Position numbers and translations under genes: made by a program. The notes under the pieces are model-generated. The model did not search any database and was not told where the DNA came from. It was given only the letters and a program-made list of their open reading frames with translations. A stretch of 64,000 nt of DNA from Solibacillus sp. FSL R5-0449 (GTDB lineage Bacteria > Bacillota > Bacilli > Bacillales_A > Planococcaceae), in assembly GCF_037975215.1 (NCBI RefSeq), contig NZ_CP150239.1, forward strand, positions 1,092,001-1,156,000. The letters run 5' to 3'. Shown here one piece after another: positions 1,300 through 63,835 of the stretch. Each line of letters begins with the position of its first letter. Positions within the stretch are counted from its first letter, which is position 1.

Positions 1300-3156
<1,857 letters not shown>

Positions 3157-3175: not shown

Positions 3176-3209
3176 AAAAGCCAAAGACCGCTTGCGGCTT
3201 TGGCTTTTA
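3176..3209 (+). terminator. Rho-independent terminator after dnaK
   Basis: AAAAGCCAAAG-A-CCG stem, CTTG loop, CGG-CTTTGGCTTTT return arm with one bulged A. It directly follows the dnaK stop and should end most hrcA-grpE-dnaK transcripts. Confidence 0.8.
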
Positions 3210-3255
3210 TGCTTGTCGTGATATGTGCTGGGCTTATTAGCGGATTTTTGTGGGG

Positions 3256-3778
3256 AAGTAGAAATGTTCGGCCTTAAAGTAGAAAGTTCAAATTTATTAG
3301 CAAATCCTCGCGAGAAAGTAGAACTTATTGAAGCGAAAGTAGAAAGTTCAATGAGTAAAGTAGAAGTTATCTATGAGAAAGTAGAAATGTTCGGCCTTAA
3401 AGTAGAAAGTGCAAGTTTTATTAGCCGATTCCCGAGAGAAAGTAGAACTTATTGAAGCGAAAGTAGAAAGTTCAGCGACTAATGTGGAAGTTATCCATGG
3501 GAAAGTAGAAGTGTTCGGCTTTAAAGTAGAAAGTTCAAATTTATTAGCAAATCCCCGTGAGAAAGTAGAACTTTTTGAAGTGAAAGTAGAAAGTTCAGCG
3601 GCTAATGTGGAAGGTAACCATGGGAAAGTAGAAGCGTACGGCCTTAAAGTAGAAAGTGTAAGTTTTATTAGCGGATTCCCGCGAGAAAGTAGAACTTATT
3701 GAAGCGAAAGTAGAAAGTTCAGCGGCTAATGTGTACGTTATTCAAAGAAAAGTAGAAATGCACACTCATAAAGTAGAA
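3256..3778 (+). repeat. Array 1: AAAGTAGAA boxes at 21-bp steps with 39/40-bp linkers
   Basis: Nineteen exact AAGTAGAA copies plus three decayed ones start at 3256, 3277 | 3316, 3337, 3358, 3379, 3400 | 3440, 3461, (3482), 3503, 3524 | 3563, 3584, (3605), 3626, 3647 | 3687, 3708, (3729), 3750, 3771. Steps inside each block are exactly 21 bp; jumps between blocks are 39, 40, 39, 40. Two linker types alternate, giving a 247-bp higher-order repeat (3316 to 3563). Read on the plus strand the box gives Lys-Val-Glu every seven residues, but the 40-bp linkers break the frame, and copies differ mostly by amino-acid-changing substitutions. I therefore treat it as non-coding. Function unknown. Confidence 0.9.
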
Positions 3779-3829: not shown

Positions 3830-4065
3830 TCCAACGCCCATACTACCCGGTAGTTGTGCGGAGTGGAGAGGCCGACTCCTAGGGGATTAGCGTGCGCGGA
3901 AAATCCACTTGATACTTGATGTATGCCGCCGTAGAGGCATACATCAAGTTAGTTGGAGCCACGCCCCCATGAGATAGGAACGAATGCTAAGAGCGTCACA
4001 TCGTGTGACAACGCATTCGTGACCAACATCGTGTTGGCCTCCGCAACGCAGCACATCGGCCTATA
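3830..4065 (+). repeat. Interspersed dyad-rich element A
   Basis: GC-richer block with three hairpins: a perfect 13-bp stem CTTGATGTATGCC / GGCATACATCAAG (3915-3948), GTCACA-TCG-TGTGAC (3995-4009) and CCAACA-TCG-TGTTGG (4023-4037). The right half is homologous, in reverse orientation, to element B near 20.9-21.0 kb, so it is a dispersed repeat. No ORF is carried. It may be a REP- or MITE-like non-autonomous element; the family name cannot be settled from sequence alone. Confidence 0.7.
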
Positions 4066-4231: not shown

Positions 4232-5353
4232 ATGAGTAAGCGCGATTACTATGAAGTACTTGGCCTGAGCAAAGGTGCAAGCAAAGATGAAATAAAAAAA
4301 GCGTATCGTAAATTATCAAAACAGTATCACCCTGATTTAAACAAAGAAGAGGGCGCAGACGTAAAGTTCAAAGAAGTCGCAGAAGCGTATGAAGTACTGT
4401 CAGACGACCAAAAACGCGCACGTTATGACCAATTCGGCCATGAAGATCCAAATGCCGGATTTGGTGGCGGCGGCTTCGGAGGCGGCGCTGGATTCGGCGG
4501 TTTCGAGGACATCTTCAGTTCGTTCTTCGGAGGCGGCCGACGTCAAGATCCAAACGCCCCACGTAAAGGTGACGATCTGCAGTTCCGTATGAACATTTCC
4601 TTCGAAGAAGCAGTATTCGGTAAAGAAACAGAAATAGAGATTCCAAAAGAAGAAACATGTGATACATGTCACGGTTCTGGTGCAAAACCAGGTACGCATC
4701 CACAAACATGTTCACAATGTAATGGCGCTGGTCAGATTAACCAGGCAGTCGACACACCGTTTGGCCGTATGGTAAACAAACGTTCTTGTCCATCATGTCG
4801 TGGTCAAGGTAAAATCATTGTGGAAAAATGTTCACCATGTCGCGGTACTGGTACAATTACGAAAAAGAAAAAAATCAAAATCACAATCCCGGCAGGTGTT
4901 GATGATGGTCAACAATTACGCGTAGCTGGTCAAGGTGAAGCAGGATACAACAATGGTCCGGCCGGCGATTTATACATTATCTTCAATGTTCGCAAGCACG
5001 AGTATTTCGAACGTGACGGCGATGATATTTTATATGAACTAAAATTAACATTCCCGCAAGCAGCGTTAGGTGATGAAATCGAAGTACCGACAATTCACGG
5101 GAAAGTGAAACTGAAAATTCCTGCAGGCACACAATCCGGTGCACAATTCCGCCTGAAAGATAAAGGCGTAAAAAATGTACACGGCTATGGCATGGGGAAC
5201 CAGTATGTCATCGTAAATGTTGTCACACCGACGAAATTAACGGAAAAACAAAAACAATTGTTACGTGAATTTGCAGAAATCAGCGGAGACATTCCGGAAG
5301 AACACGGAAGCTCGCTGTTCGACAAAATTAAGAAAAAAATTAAAGGCGACTAA
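4232..5353 (+). CDS. dnaJ: DnaJ (Hsp40) co-chaperone
   Basis: Stimulates DnaK ATPase and delivers substrates. The 373 residues show a J-domain with HPD at 33-35, a Gly/Phe-rich linker (about 70-105), four zinc-binding repeats [24 protein letters not shown] and CSPCRGTG (about 142-205) and the two C-terminal beta-domains. GGAGAG precedes the ATG. Unlike the usual tight dnaK-dnaJ spacing, 1,075 bp of terminator, repeat array 1 and element A lie upstream. A separate promoter is therefore expected; a TAAAAT at 4194-4199 is a weak -10 candidate. Confidence 0.97.
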
Positions 5354-20824: not shown

Positions 20825-21020
20825 CGGGTAGTAATTTATCTGTTTGGGATAATTGTTTAGCGCTAGAAGTAAGACTTCCAGCTTTGGCATAAAACAGAGA
20901 TTGTGGTCAACTACCCGTAAAAGCCCGATTGGTTTGGGCCAACACGATGTTGGTCACACAAGCGTTGTCACAGGACGTGACGTTTTTAGCTTGTGTTCCT
21001 TTTAATCAGTGGGGATAAAA
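20815..21020 (-). repeat. Interspersed dyad-rich element B (reverse copy of element A)
   Basis: In reverse orientation the part 20936-21020 aligns with 3965-4042 of element A: both contain CCAACA-CGA/TCG-TGTTGG (here 20939-20953), a GTCAC/GTGAC hairpin (20967-20981) and a conserved AGGAAC and CCCCA segment. The other half carries the inverted pair ACGGGTAGT (20824-20832) / ACTACCCGT (20910-20918), the motif also seen as CTACCCGG in element A. It fills most of the 451-bp phoH-pgpH gap. Confidence 0.7.
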
Positions 21021-25463: not shown

Positions 25464-26036
25464 TTCTACTTTTCGTGCGTCTCGTTTTCGTGCGAGGAGG
25501 TTCTACTTTCGCCATGAAATATTCTCCATTTCTCATTGAATTGGCGAATAAGGTAGGCGTGTTCTACATTCCATGCGTGTTGTTCCACATTAGGATGAAA
25601 AGGTTCTACTTTCGGGCAGGGAGGTTCTACTTTTGCCATGAAATATTCTACATTCCTCATTAAATTGGCGAATAAGGTAAGCGCGTTCCACATTCAGTGA
25701 GTATTGTTCCACATTAGGATGAAAAGGTTCTACTTTCGGGCAGGGAGGTTCTCCTTTCGCCATGAAATATTCTCCATTTTCTATTTGTTTGGCAAATAAG
25801 GTATGCGTGTTCTACATTTCGTGAGTATTGTTCCACATTACGGAGAAATAGTTCTACTTTTGGGCAGGGAGGTTCTACTTTCGCCATGAAATATTCTACA
25901 TCGCTCATTGAATTGGCGAATAAAGAAAGCGCGTCCCACTTTCCAATGAAAAGATTCTACTTCCAAGCCAAAACCTTCTACTTTTACCACTAAACTTTCT
26001 CCAAACCTCAACAACGAGTCCAATAAATTCTCCCAC
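25464..26036 (-). repeat. Array 2: same box architecture as array 1, opposite orientation
   Basis: On the plus strand the box is TTCTACTTT or TTC(T/C)(A/C)CATT; on the minus strand this is the AAAGTAGAA of array 1. Starts: 25464, 25501, 25522 | 25562, 25583, 25604, 25625, 25646 | 25686, 25707, 25728, 25749, 25770 | 25810, 25831, 25852, 25873, 25894 | 25934, 25955, 25976, 25997 | 26028. Steps inside blocks are exactly 21 bp, jumps between full blocks exactly 40, giving a 124-bp super-period three times in a row. The linker core (minus strand TTATT-N-GCC-N-ATTC) also occurs in array 1. Minus-strand reading gives Val-Glu every seven residues but the 40-bp linkers shift frame. It fills the 708-bp gap between era and the next gene. 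Confidence 0.9.
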
Positions 26037-51086: not shown

Positions 51087-51107
51087 GATTAAGACAAATT
51101 GAATAAA

Positions 51108-51275
51108 TTTGCAGGAAAAAGATGCATTATGCATAAATGGGAATTCGGTGCAAATCCGAAGCTATATCCGTAACTGTAAGCGTTGATGAAAATAAGTGTG
51201 ATACCACTGCTAATATGGCGGGAAGGTACTTATGAGTAAAGTGAAACGCAGAGCCAGGAGACCAATCTTTTTCTT
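51108..51275 (+). ncRNA. Cobalamin riboswitch
   Basis: Core features in order: GGGAATTCGGTGCAAATCCG, then CCGTAACTGTAAGCG, and the B12 box GAGCCAGGAGACC ending near 51265. A terminator hairpin at 51362-51392 follows, so adenosylcobalamin is expected to switch off transcription of the downstream genes. Confidence 0.92.
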
Positions 51276-51361
51276 ATCGTAACATCCCTCTTCGGAATTA
51301 AAGAGAATGTACGGCAGTCACGGATCGAATGAGCATTATTGTGCCCTTTTTTGATTTTTGA

Positions 51362-63178: not shown

Positions 63179-63835
63179 TTCTAATATTCATGCTGGAAGT
63201 TCTAATAAAATCTGAAAAGTTCTAATATGTTATGGATCTTCTAATATAAGTTGTGGATTGTCTAATAAGTGTCTCCGATTTTCGAATATCGCGGTCAGAT
63301 GTTCTAATAAGTCAGTCGGATTGTCTAATAAACAGGAAAAAGTTCTAATATAACTACCCCGGTGCACACCATAGCCTCTGTGGAACCGTATAAAGACCAT
63401 TTCTTCGCCATAAACCGGCTGAACTTCTAATATAGTTCTAAAAAGCCAAAACAAATCTTCTAATATGTGGAGATGTGCACCCATTAGCATACCGAAGCCC
63501 AAAAAAGCGCTGAAAGTTCTAATATCCATGCTGGAAGTTCTAATAAAATCTGAAAAGTTCTAATATATAACGGAACTTCTAATATATCTCCCGAATCTTC
63601 TAATAAGTAGCTTCGATCTTCGAATAACGCGGTCAGAAGTTCTAATATGTCATTCAGATTGTCTAATAAAATCGAAAAAGTTCTAATATAACTACCCCGG
63701 TGCACACCATAGCCTCCGTGGAAACGTATTTAGACCGTTCTTCGCCCTAAACCGACTGAACTTCTAATATCCCTGTAAAAAGTTCTAATAAGCCACACAA
63801 ATCTTCTAATAAACCCAAAAAAGTTCTAATAAATC
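63179..63835 (-). repeat. Array 3: TTCTAATA boxes at ~21-bp steps, 338-bp tandem duplication
   Basis: Boxes TTCTAATA (variants TTCGAATA, GTCTAATA) start at 63179, 63200, 63220, 63239, 63260, 63281, 63302, 63323, 63343, and again at 63517, 63538, 63558, 63577, 63598, 63619, 63640, 63661, 63681, i.e. the same nine-box block shifted by exactly 338 bp. Between them a conserved non-box segment (CTACCCCGGTGCACACCATAG at 63352 and 63690; 21-base segment abbreviated to its core CCCCGGTGCACACC) is also duplicated. Minus-strand translation gives Ile/Leu-Leu-Glu every seven residues, but 19- and 20-bp steps break the frame. It fills most of the 799-bp gap before the last gene. Confidence 0.88.

What the first reader, a model, noticed from the sequence alone, without database searches (positions are those of the whole stretch)
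3256..3778. Helically phased box array 1 between dnaK and dnaJ
Seen: AAAGTAGAA boxes at exact 21-bp steps in blocks of five, separated by 39/40-bp linkers, with a 247-bp higher-order period from two alternating linkers. 21 bp equals two turns of B-DNA, so every box in a block faces the same side of the helix; 39/40 bp is slightly under four turns. It also equals seven codons (KVE heptads), but the 40-bp linkers break the frame and differences between copies change amino acids (for example Ile-Glu-Ala to Phe-Glu-Val). A DNA-level role, such as a cooperative protein-binding platform, or a selfish tandem repeat fits better than coding. The function is inference.
Basis: partly seen in the sequence, partly recalled or inferred. 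Interest (0 to 1): 0.75.

Follow-up and report, generated by a model that had tools for sequence, protein, structure and literature searches.

The report
Helically phased DNA box arrays
Between two heat-shock genes of a Bacillus relative lies a noncoding stretch in which one short DNA word recurs every 21 bases, exactly two turns of the helix; related arrays occur elsewhere on the chromosome and in relatives, and the word and its spacing are conserved while the DNA between drifts, so it is probably a docking platform for an unknown protein.

Summary
AAAGTAGAA occurs 18 times exactly in window 3255-3778, at 21-bp steps in a 123/124-bp superunit (247 = two superunits). The 39/40-bp linkers hide a degenerate sixth box (TATTAGC).

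It is one of 14 such arrays found in this genome. A sister type (TATTAGAA) is more abundant, with a nearly fixed layout (nine-box block at 21x5, 19, 20, 20/21 bp, often behind a four-box block). Other genera of the family carry their own versions: TAGAA at 21 bp with lineage-specific flanks.

Coding is excluded: stops are not avoided, and orthologous arrays carry them in frame. RNA structure is unsupported. In orthologous type-2 arrays boxes change ten times more slowly than spacers (2.5% vs 25.5%), spacers change like flanking DNA, and indels are rare. That is in-place selection on a word and its helical phase.

Arrays lie mostly at gene 3' ends and mostly point with transcription; avoidance of divergent regions is only weakly significant. 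Best reading: a sequence-specific protein-binding platform, working perhaps like E. coli BIMEs but not a member of that family. The protein, its binding and the function are not shown.

The parts
3255..3778 (+). Type-1 array of the finding: 18 exact AAAGTAGAA boxes, GAAGTAGAA at 3255, degenerate boxes at 3481, 3604 and 3728
3315..3438 (+). First complete superunit (124 bp): boxes at 3315, 3336, 3357, 3378, 3399 plus degenerate sixth box
3439..3561 (+). Second superunit (123 bp)
3562..3685 (+). Third superunit (124 bp)
3686..3778 (+). Fourth, partly decayed superunit
3295..3302 (+). Degenerate type-2-like box (TATTAGCA) in the first linker; core 18 bp after and 21 bp before the neighbouring cores
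   Evidence: boxes at such places in linkers of other arrays
3419..3426 (+). Degenerate type-2-like box (TATTAGCC) in the second linker (19 / 21 bp)
3542..3549 (+). Degenerate type-2-like box (TATTAGCA) in the third linker
3666..3673 (+). Degenerate type-2-like box (TATTAGCG) in the fourth linker
3176..3209 (+). dnaK terminator-like hairpin with T run, about 45 bp before the first box (read by eye)
   Evidence: terminator-like hairpins at array-facing gene ends
25501..25984 (-). Second type-1 array in the window, opposite to both flanking genes
63179..63348 (-). Type-2 array block (TATTAGAA boxes)
63517..63686 (-). Type-2 array block
63762..63829 (-). Type-2 four-box block

Best explanation
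The array is a noncoding DNA platform of directly repeated binding sites for a sequence-specific protein not yet identified. Sites 21 bp apart face the same side of B-DNA, so copies of the protein could line up and contact each other. SHOWN by sequence: in the sister type 2, boxes and spacing are under strong in-place selection and spacers evolve like flanking DNA; type 1 points the same way less cleanly; the arrays are not coding; they lie mostly at gene 3' ends, often after a terminator-like hairpin, and mostly point with transcription; the same 21-bp/TAGAA plan recurs across the family with different flanking letters. INFERRED: that a protein binds, that binding is cooperative, and that the job is architectural, marking or insulating the ends of transcription units (supercoil management, blocking read-through), as BIME/REP clusters are thought to act in E. 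coli. I put the DNA-level protein platform at about 0.6 and the BIME-like role at about 0.25 (lowered from 0.3 after weakened the placement evidence).
For: In four orthologous type-2 loci (three species each, 12 pairs, not independent; boxes placed by best fit to the first sequence) boxes differ at 22 of 864 sites, spacers at 307 of 1202, flanking intergenic DNA at 671 of 3124; gap openings against substitutions are 4 to 329 in arrays and 47 to 671 in flanks. In 109 arrays from eight genomes 727 of 871 steps are exactly 21 bp; reversed sequences gave 0 arrays and nine stretches not chosen for arrays gave 1 (the finder favours 21-bp steps, so the share is partly built in). Type-2 paralogs with mostly unrelated spacers keep the same irregular 19/20 steps. 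Arrays lie in orthologous intergenic regions of several species of the genus, including dnaK-dnaJ, with different box numbers. Stops not avoided; no RNA structure (z 0.46 and 0.39). 18 convergent against 4 divergent array loci (p = 0.004). Terminator-like hairpins in 66 of 121 gene ends facing an array, 4 of 121 shuffled. BIME-2 elements bind gyrase and lie in intergenic regions (PMC6379681 and PMC2817692, passages).
Against: No binding protein was found; LytTR regulators, whose site geometry fits, are in all 16 genomes of the genus whether or not arrays are present. Between co-directional genes 29 of 36 arrays point with the genes (p = 0.0003), a polarity that a non-polar platform does not need and an RNA element would explain. 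Divergent regions hold 4 of 58 array loci against 54 of 313 background regions, only p = 0.049, and in G092 plus G032 there is no depletion (3 of 21). Some genomes of the genus show neither type with these patterns, so the function is dispensable. For the finding's own type 1 the selection test is weaker because whole units come and go (within the array boxes 258/270 identical, spacers 253/360) and because box places were chosen by exact TAGAA in one sequence.
Confidence: 0.6

Rival explanations
1. RNA-level element: the array is transcribed as a 3' extension of the upstream gene and the repeated word in the RNA is bound by an RNA-binding protein or a nuclease.
For: 29 of 36 arrays between co-directional genes point with those genes; many arrays begin within about 100 bp of a stop codon.
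Against: No structure above shuffles in the two sequences folded; no Rfam match overlapping the arrays in the window or in 20 type-2 loci; 7 of 36 point against both neighbours, one type-2 case in three species; about half of the array-facing gene ends have a terminator-like hairpin before the array (66 of 121); exact 21-bp phase has no obvious reason in RNA.
Confidence: 0.15
2. Selfish or neutral satellite: tandem units that spread and expand without host function.
For: Unit number varies between species at the same locus; higher-order repeats; patchy presence within the genus.
Against: Boxes are conserved about tenfold over spacers at fixed orthologous places (type 2), which neutral or merely mobile copies would not show; spacers are not homogenised. 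No match of the type-1 array in the phage or plasmid collections by blastn; the nine viral-contig hits of the three-box patterns are short, near-perfect repeats unlike these arrays.
Confidence: 0.12
3. Operator array or decoy for a transcription factor of LytTR type (9-bp direct repeats, 12-bp spacer), regulating a neighbour such as dnaJ or titrating the regulator.
For: LytTR regulators bind 9-bp repeats separated by 12 bp (PMC2766830, passages), the geometry of AAAGTAGAA-N12.
Against: Array loci are at convergent more than divergent gene pairs (18 against 4); 4-6 LytTR hits in each of 16 genomes whether arrays are present or absent; the box fits the LytTR word, as I recall it, only in part.
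Confidence: 0.08
4. Coding sequence for a KVE heptad (coiled-coil) repeat protein.
For: 21 bp = 7 codons; ORFs of 76 and 97 aa cross parts of the array.
Against: 40-bp linkers break the frame; stops not below expectation in that frame; in-frame TAG in orthologous arrays.
Confidence: 0.01

Closest known systems
BIME / REP elements of enterobacteria (bound by DNA gyrase, IHF, Pol I; PMC2817692, passages)
   Same: Many copies per chromosome, extragenic, clusters with higher-order units
   Different: REPs are palindromic and alternate in orientation; here boxes are non-palindromic direct repeats at a fixed helical step
LytTR-regulator operators (SilA, AgrA type; PMC2766830, passages)
   Same: 9-bp direct repeat, 12-bp spacer, 21-bp step, same face of the helix
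   Different: Those are one pair at a promoter; here up to about 30 boxes, mostly after gene ends, in tens of loci, and the word differs
Plasmid iterons and par centromere arrays (recalled, no call)
   Same: Direct repeats of about 20-22 bp bound cooperatively
   Different: Those are single loci beside rep or par genes; these are dispersed over a chromosome, and I noticed no constant neighbour gene
CRISPR arrays (recalled, no call)
   Same: Conserved repeat, diverged spacer
   Different: 9-bp repeat and 12-bp spacer; in type 2 the spacers drift by point mutation at orthologous loci; cas genes were not searched for

Membership tests
REP / BIME | Imperfect palindrome in each unit | tested here: not met
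   Box is not its own complement (sequence); folding no better than shuffles
REP / BIME | Alternating orientation inside the cluster | tested here: not met
   No minus-strand box inside array 1
REP / BIME | Extragenic, many copies | tested here: met
   14 type-1 arrays and at least 24 type-2 loci in one genome; of 109 arrays in eight genomes 7 lay mostly inside a long ORF
REP / BIME | Linked RAYT transposase; gyrase binding | not tested
   RAYT was not searched for; gyrase binding needs an experiment
LytTR operator | 9-bp direct repeats separated by 12 bp | tested here: met
   Type-1 geometry; definition from PMC2766830
LytTR operator | At a regulated promoter | tested here: inconclusive
   4 of 58 loci in divergent regions, 18 convergent, 36 co-directional; promoters were not mapped
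LytTR operator | Cognate regulator tracks the sites | tested here: not met
   4-6 LytTR hits in each of 16 genomes, array-bearing or not; a core LytTR protein could still bind
Coding repeat protein | Continuous frame with selection against stops | tested here: not met
Known RNA family (Rfam 15) | Match over gathering score in the array | tested here: not met
   matches elsewhere in the window and loci only
CRISPR | cas genes and leader | not tested
   No cas search was run; repeat and spacer sizes do not fit

The most novel reading that the evidence does not exclude
A family-wide, undescribed class of chromosomal elements: helically phased TAGAA arrays that, with a co-evolving DNA-binding protein whose specificity has changed from genus to genus (and exists in several versions in one genome), mark and insulate the ends of transcription units, a Gram-positive counterpart of BIMEs built on a wholly different principle (phased direct repeats with fixed irregular steps).
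Probability: 0.35. Interest if true: 0.88.

Novelty: categorically new. Interest (0 to 1): 0.77.

Why it matters
If true, there is a selected, lineage-diversifying DNA element present in tens of copies per chromosome in many members of one bacterial family, with an unknown protein partner. It would give a Gram-positive system for testing how arrays at transcription-unit ends shape chromosome structure, and a natural series of coupled changes in a DNA word and its reader. Gene callers may take pieces of it for short KVE-repeat proteins (ORFs).

Tried and rejected
Coding (KVE): rejected by stops. The only type-1 frame with fewer stops than expected (275 against 294.2 +/- 5.2) has a stop in nearly every box. 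RNA structure: no signal; Rfam: none at the arrays. Phage or plasmid carriage of the type-1 array: no blastn match; nine viral-contig hits are unlike the arrays. LytTR as partner by presence/absence: not supported. Replication polarity: in 54 loci with clear GC skew 46 arrays follow the leading strand, genes 417 of 540 (p = 0.23), so gene direction explains it overall; but in G092 plus G032 it is 19 of 19 against 151 of 209 genes (p = 0.005), unexplained. Cross-genus positional orthology: no sampled locus had both neighbours shared between genera. Literature searches for such repeats: (listings only), nothing pertinent; the library is open-access only. The order-level search held the same 261 genomes as the family search, so it shows nothing beyond the family. 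A gene-content comparison for the partner was not done. A first placement count included 20 type-2 loci taken from a capped listing that shows mostly plus-strand matches; I recounted without them and use only that.

Full report
OBSERVATION. In window 3255-3778, between dnaK (1303-3156) and dnaJ (4232-5353) (gene names in this report are my reading of the translations, no family search was run on them), AAAGTAGAA occurs exactly 18 times, GAAGTAGAA once at 3255, and degenerate boxes fill the places at 3481, 3604 and 3728. No minus-strand box lies inside. The two-box pattern gives 31 matches in the window against a shuffle mean of 0.18. TRF reports 124-bp and 247-bp periods. Each of the four 39/40-bp linkers holds TATTAGC with its core 18 or 19 bp after the previous core and 21 bp before the next. 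The superunit is therefore six boxes in 123 or 124 bp, and 247 is two superunits.

GENOME. The window lies in a single 3.58-Mb contig that starts at a dnaA-like gene; GC skew changes sign between the samples at 1.65 and 1.85 Mb. The two-box pattern (up to 3 mismatches) gives 197 matches against 53 for the reversed pattern. Chaining in the regions that held clustered matches gives 14 type-1 arrays: 13 at 0.33-1.12 Mb and one at 2.0 Mb. The match listings are capped at 100 places; from the total counts at up to 2 mismatches (99 plus and 37 minus) and the listed places I reckon that about five plus-strand matches are unlisted, no more than the reversed control, so a further clear array is unlikely.

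SECOND TYPE. The array finder also found blocks of TATTAGAA at about 21 bp. Three such boxes in a row occur 257 times in this genome at up to 3 mismatches, reversed pattern once. Twenty loci were fetched from the listed matches; that listing is capped and shows mostly plus-strand, well-preserved copies. In 19 of the 20 there is a block of nine or more boxes with steps 21 (first step 20 or 21), 21, 21, 21, 21, 19, 20, 20/21; in 13 of 20 a four- or five-box block lies some 120-155 bp upstream; the reversed control gives 0. Spacers of these paralogs are mostly unrelated, apart from a conserved stretch at boxes 6 to 8, where the short steps lie. Type-1 linkers carry one type-2-like box each, so the two types look related.

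RELATIVES. None of 80 named dnaK-dnaJ regions carries the array. Of 16 genomes of the genus, counting the window's own, six are rich in type 1: G000, G004, G005, G007, G008, G012. Eight are rich in type 2 (those six, G003 and G006), three have 9-11 matches and five none at up to 2 mismatches; of those five, G002 has 13 matches of the general TAGAA pattern and may hold another version. Arrays lie in the same intergenic regions, with both neighbours shared, in G000, G005, G008 and G012. For dnaK-dnaJ the chained cores number 21, 30 and 12 in G000, G005 and G008; the array beside a 617-aa gene in G012 is probably the same locus.

FAMILY. Four TAGAA at 21 bp (up to 1 mismatch) reach 10 or more matches and at least five times the reversed control in about 49 of 261 genomes, 10 of 19 genera; this is my hand count from the printed table, and some matches in other genera may be coding repeats. 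Of 31 genomes reached through named loci (32 asked, 1 not held), those with many matches include Lysinibacillus cavernae, L. xylanilyticus, Lysinibacillus sp. KCTC 33748, L. sphaericus OT4b.31 and L. fusiformis Juneja; L. macroides and L. piscis have few. Consensus words keep TAGAA and change in front of it: AAAGTAGAA; AAAGTG..GGATAGAA; GACTTCCCATAGAA; AAGCGCTCATAGAA (13 units only); TATTAGAA. G032 and Metasolibacillus meyeri (G285) each hold several versions.

SELECTION. Four type-2 loci were aligned in three species each (12 pairs, not independent). Boxes: 22 differences in 864 sites. Spacers: 307 in 1202. Flanking intergenic DNA: 671 in 3124. Gap openings: 0, 4 and 47. Spacers thus evolve like the flanks, boxes ten times more slowly, and gap openings per substitution are about six times rarer in the arrays (Fisher p = 7e-5, overstated by the shared species). 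For three type-1 loci the alignments show the same direction (boxes 0.89-0.99 identical, rest 0.47-0.90) but with gains and losses of units, and box places were taken from one sequence. This is the signature expected of binding sites with a phase constraint.

STEPS. In 109 arrays from eight genomes 727 of 871 steps are 21 bp. The finder allows only 18-22, 39-42 and 60-63 bp and favours 21, so this share is partly built in; the reversed sequences, scored the same way, give no array, and nine stretches not chosen for arrays give one.

NOT CODING, NO RNA FOLD. In the KVE frame 56 stops were seen against 43.8 +/- 5.0 from column shuffles over 279 type-1 units of four genomes; the type-2 frames lie within 1.5 sd of expectation. 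The G005 and G008 dnaK-dnaJ arrays carry KVE-stop in repeated units. RNA folding of the finding's array and of one type-2 locus is no better than shuffles.

PLACE. In 61 array loci merged by intergenic region from G000, G032, G092, G150 and G251 (crude ORF calls, at least 100 aa; G251 from a partial list), 58 had both neighbours: 36 co-directional, 18 convergent, 4 divergent; background regions over 60 bp in the same loci: 213, 46, 54. Divergent against the rest gives p = 0.049, convergent against divergent p = 0.004. Between co-directional genes 29 of 36 arrays point with the genes. Agreement with the leading strand, 46 of 54, is not beyond that of genes, 417 of 540, overall, though it is in G092 plus G032 (19 of 19 against 151 of 209, p = 0.005). 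Terminator-like hairpins were found in 66 of 121 gene ends facing an array, 4 of 121 in shuffled sequence (orthologous loci counted apart). In the finding a dnaK hairpin (3176-3209) ends about 45 bp before the first box.

MECHANISM. Selection on a word and on its helical phase, in noncoding DNA mostly at gene ends, is best explained by a protein that binds the word on one face of the helix and contacts its neighbours. What it does there is inference; the nearest functional precedent is the BIME, an extragenic cluster that binds gyrase (PMC6379681 and PMC2817692, passages read). The nearest geometric precedent is the LytTR operator, 9-bp repeats with a 12-bp spacer (PMC2766830, passages), but LytTR genes do not track the arrays. 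The polarity with transcription is the main point against a simple architectural platform and the main support for an RNA rival; arrays that point against both neighbours (7 of 36) and hairpins before many arrays speak for DNA.

NOVELTY. No Rfam family matches the arrays, two REP/BIME features tested fail, and six literature searches found no description; subscription journals were not searched. I rate it categorically new, knowing that an unsearched paper may describe part of it.

Noticed in passing
window 3971-4037 (+) and 20939-21005 (-): Two Bacillaceae-1 RNA elements (RF01690); the first lies in the same dnaK-dnaJ intergenic region as the array.
   Followed up: no
window 51103-51284 (+): Cobalamin riboswitch.
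   Followed up: no
G000 0.33-1.12 Mb: 13 of 14 type-1 arrays lie in about a fifth of the chromosome on one replication arm, while listed type-2 matches run from 0.13 to 1.57 and 3.06 to 3.40 Mb (capped list). Unexplained.
   Followed up: partly
G032 and G092: All 19 array loci with clear GC skew point with the leading strand, more than genes do (p = 0.005). Unexplained.
   Followed up: partly
G143, G147, G154, G061, G063 and others: The reversed control pattern (AAGAT at 21 bp) is itself enriched in some genomes of the family, perhaps a further class of 21-bp arrays.
   Followed up: no
G092:C1:467875-468237: Nearly perfect 21-bp tandem repeat CTGCTCGGGTCCCTCGTAGAA, unlike the diverged arrays; possibly coding.
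   Followed up: no
L282 (G000 0.314 Mb): Three nine-box type-2 blocks in a row, about 235 bp apart.
   Followed up: no
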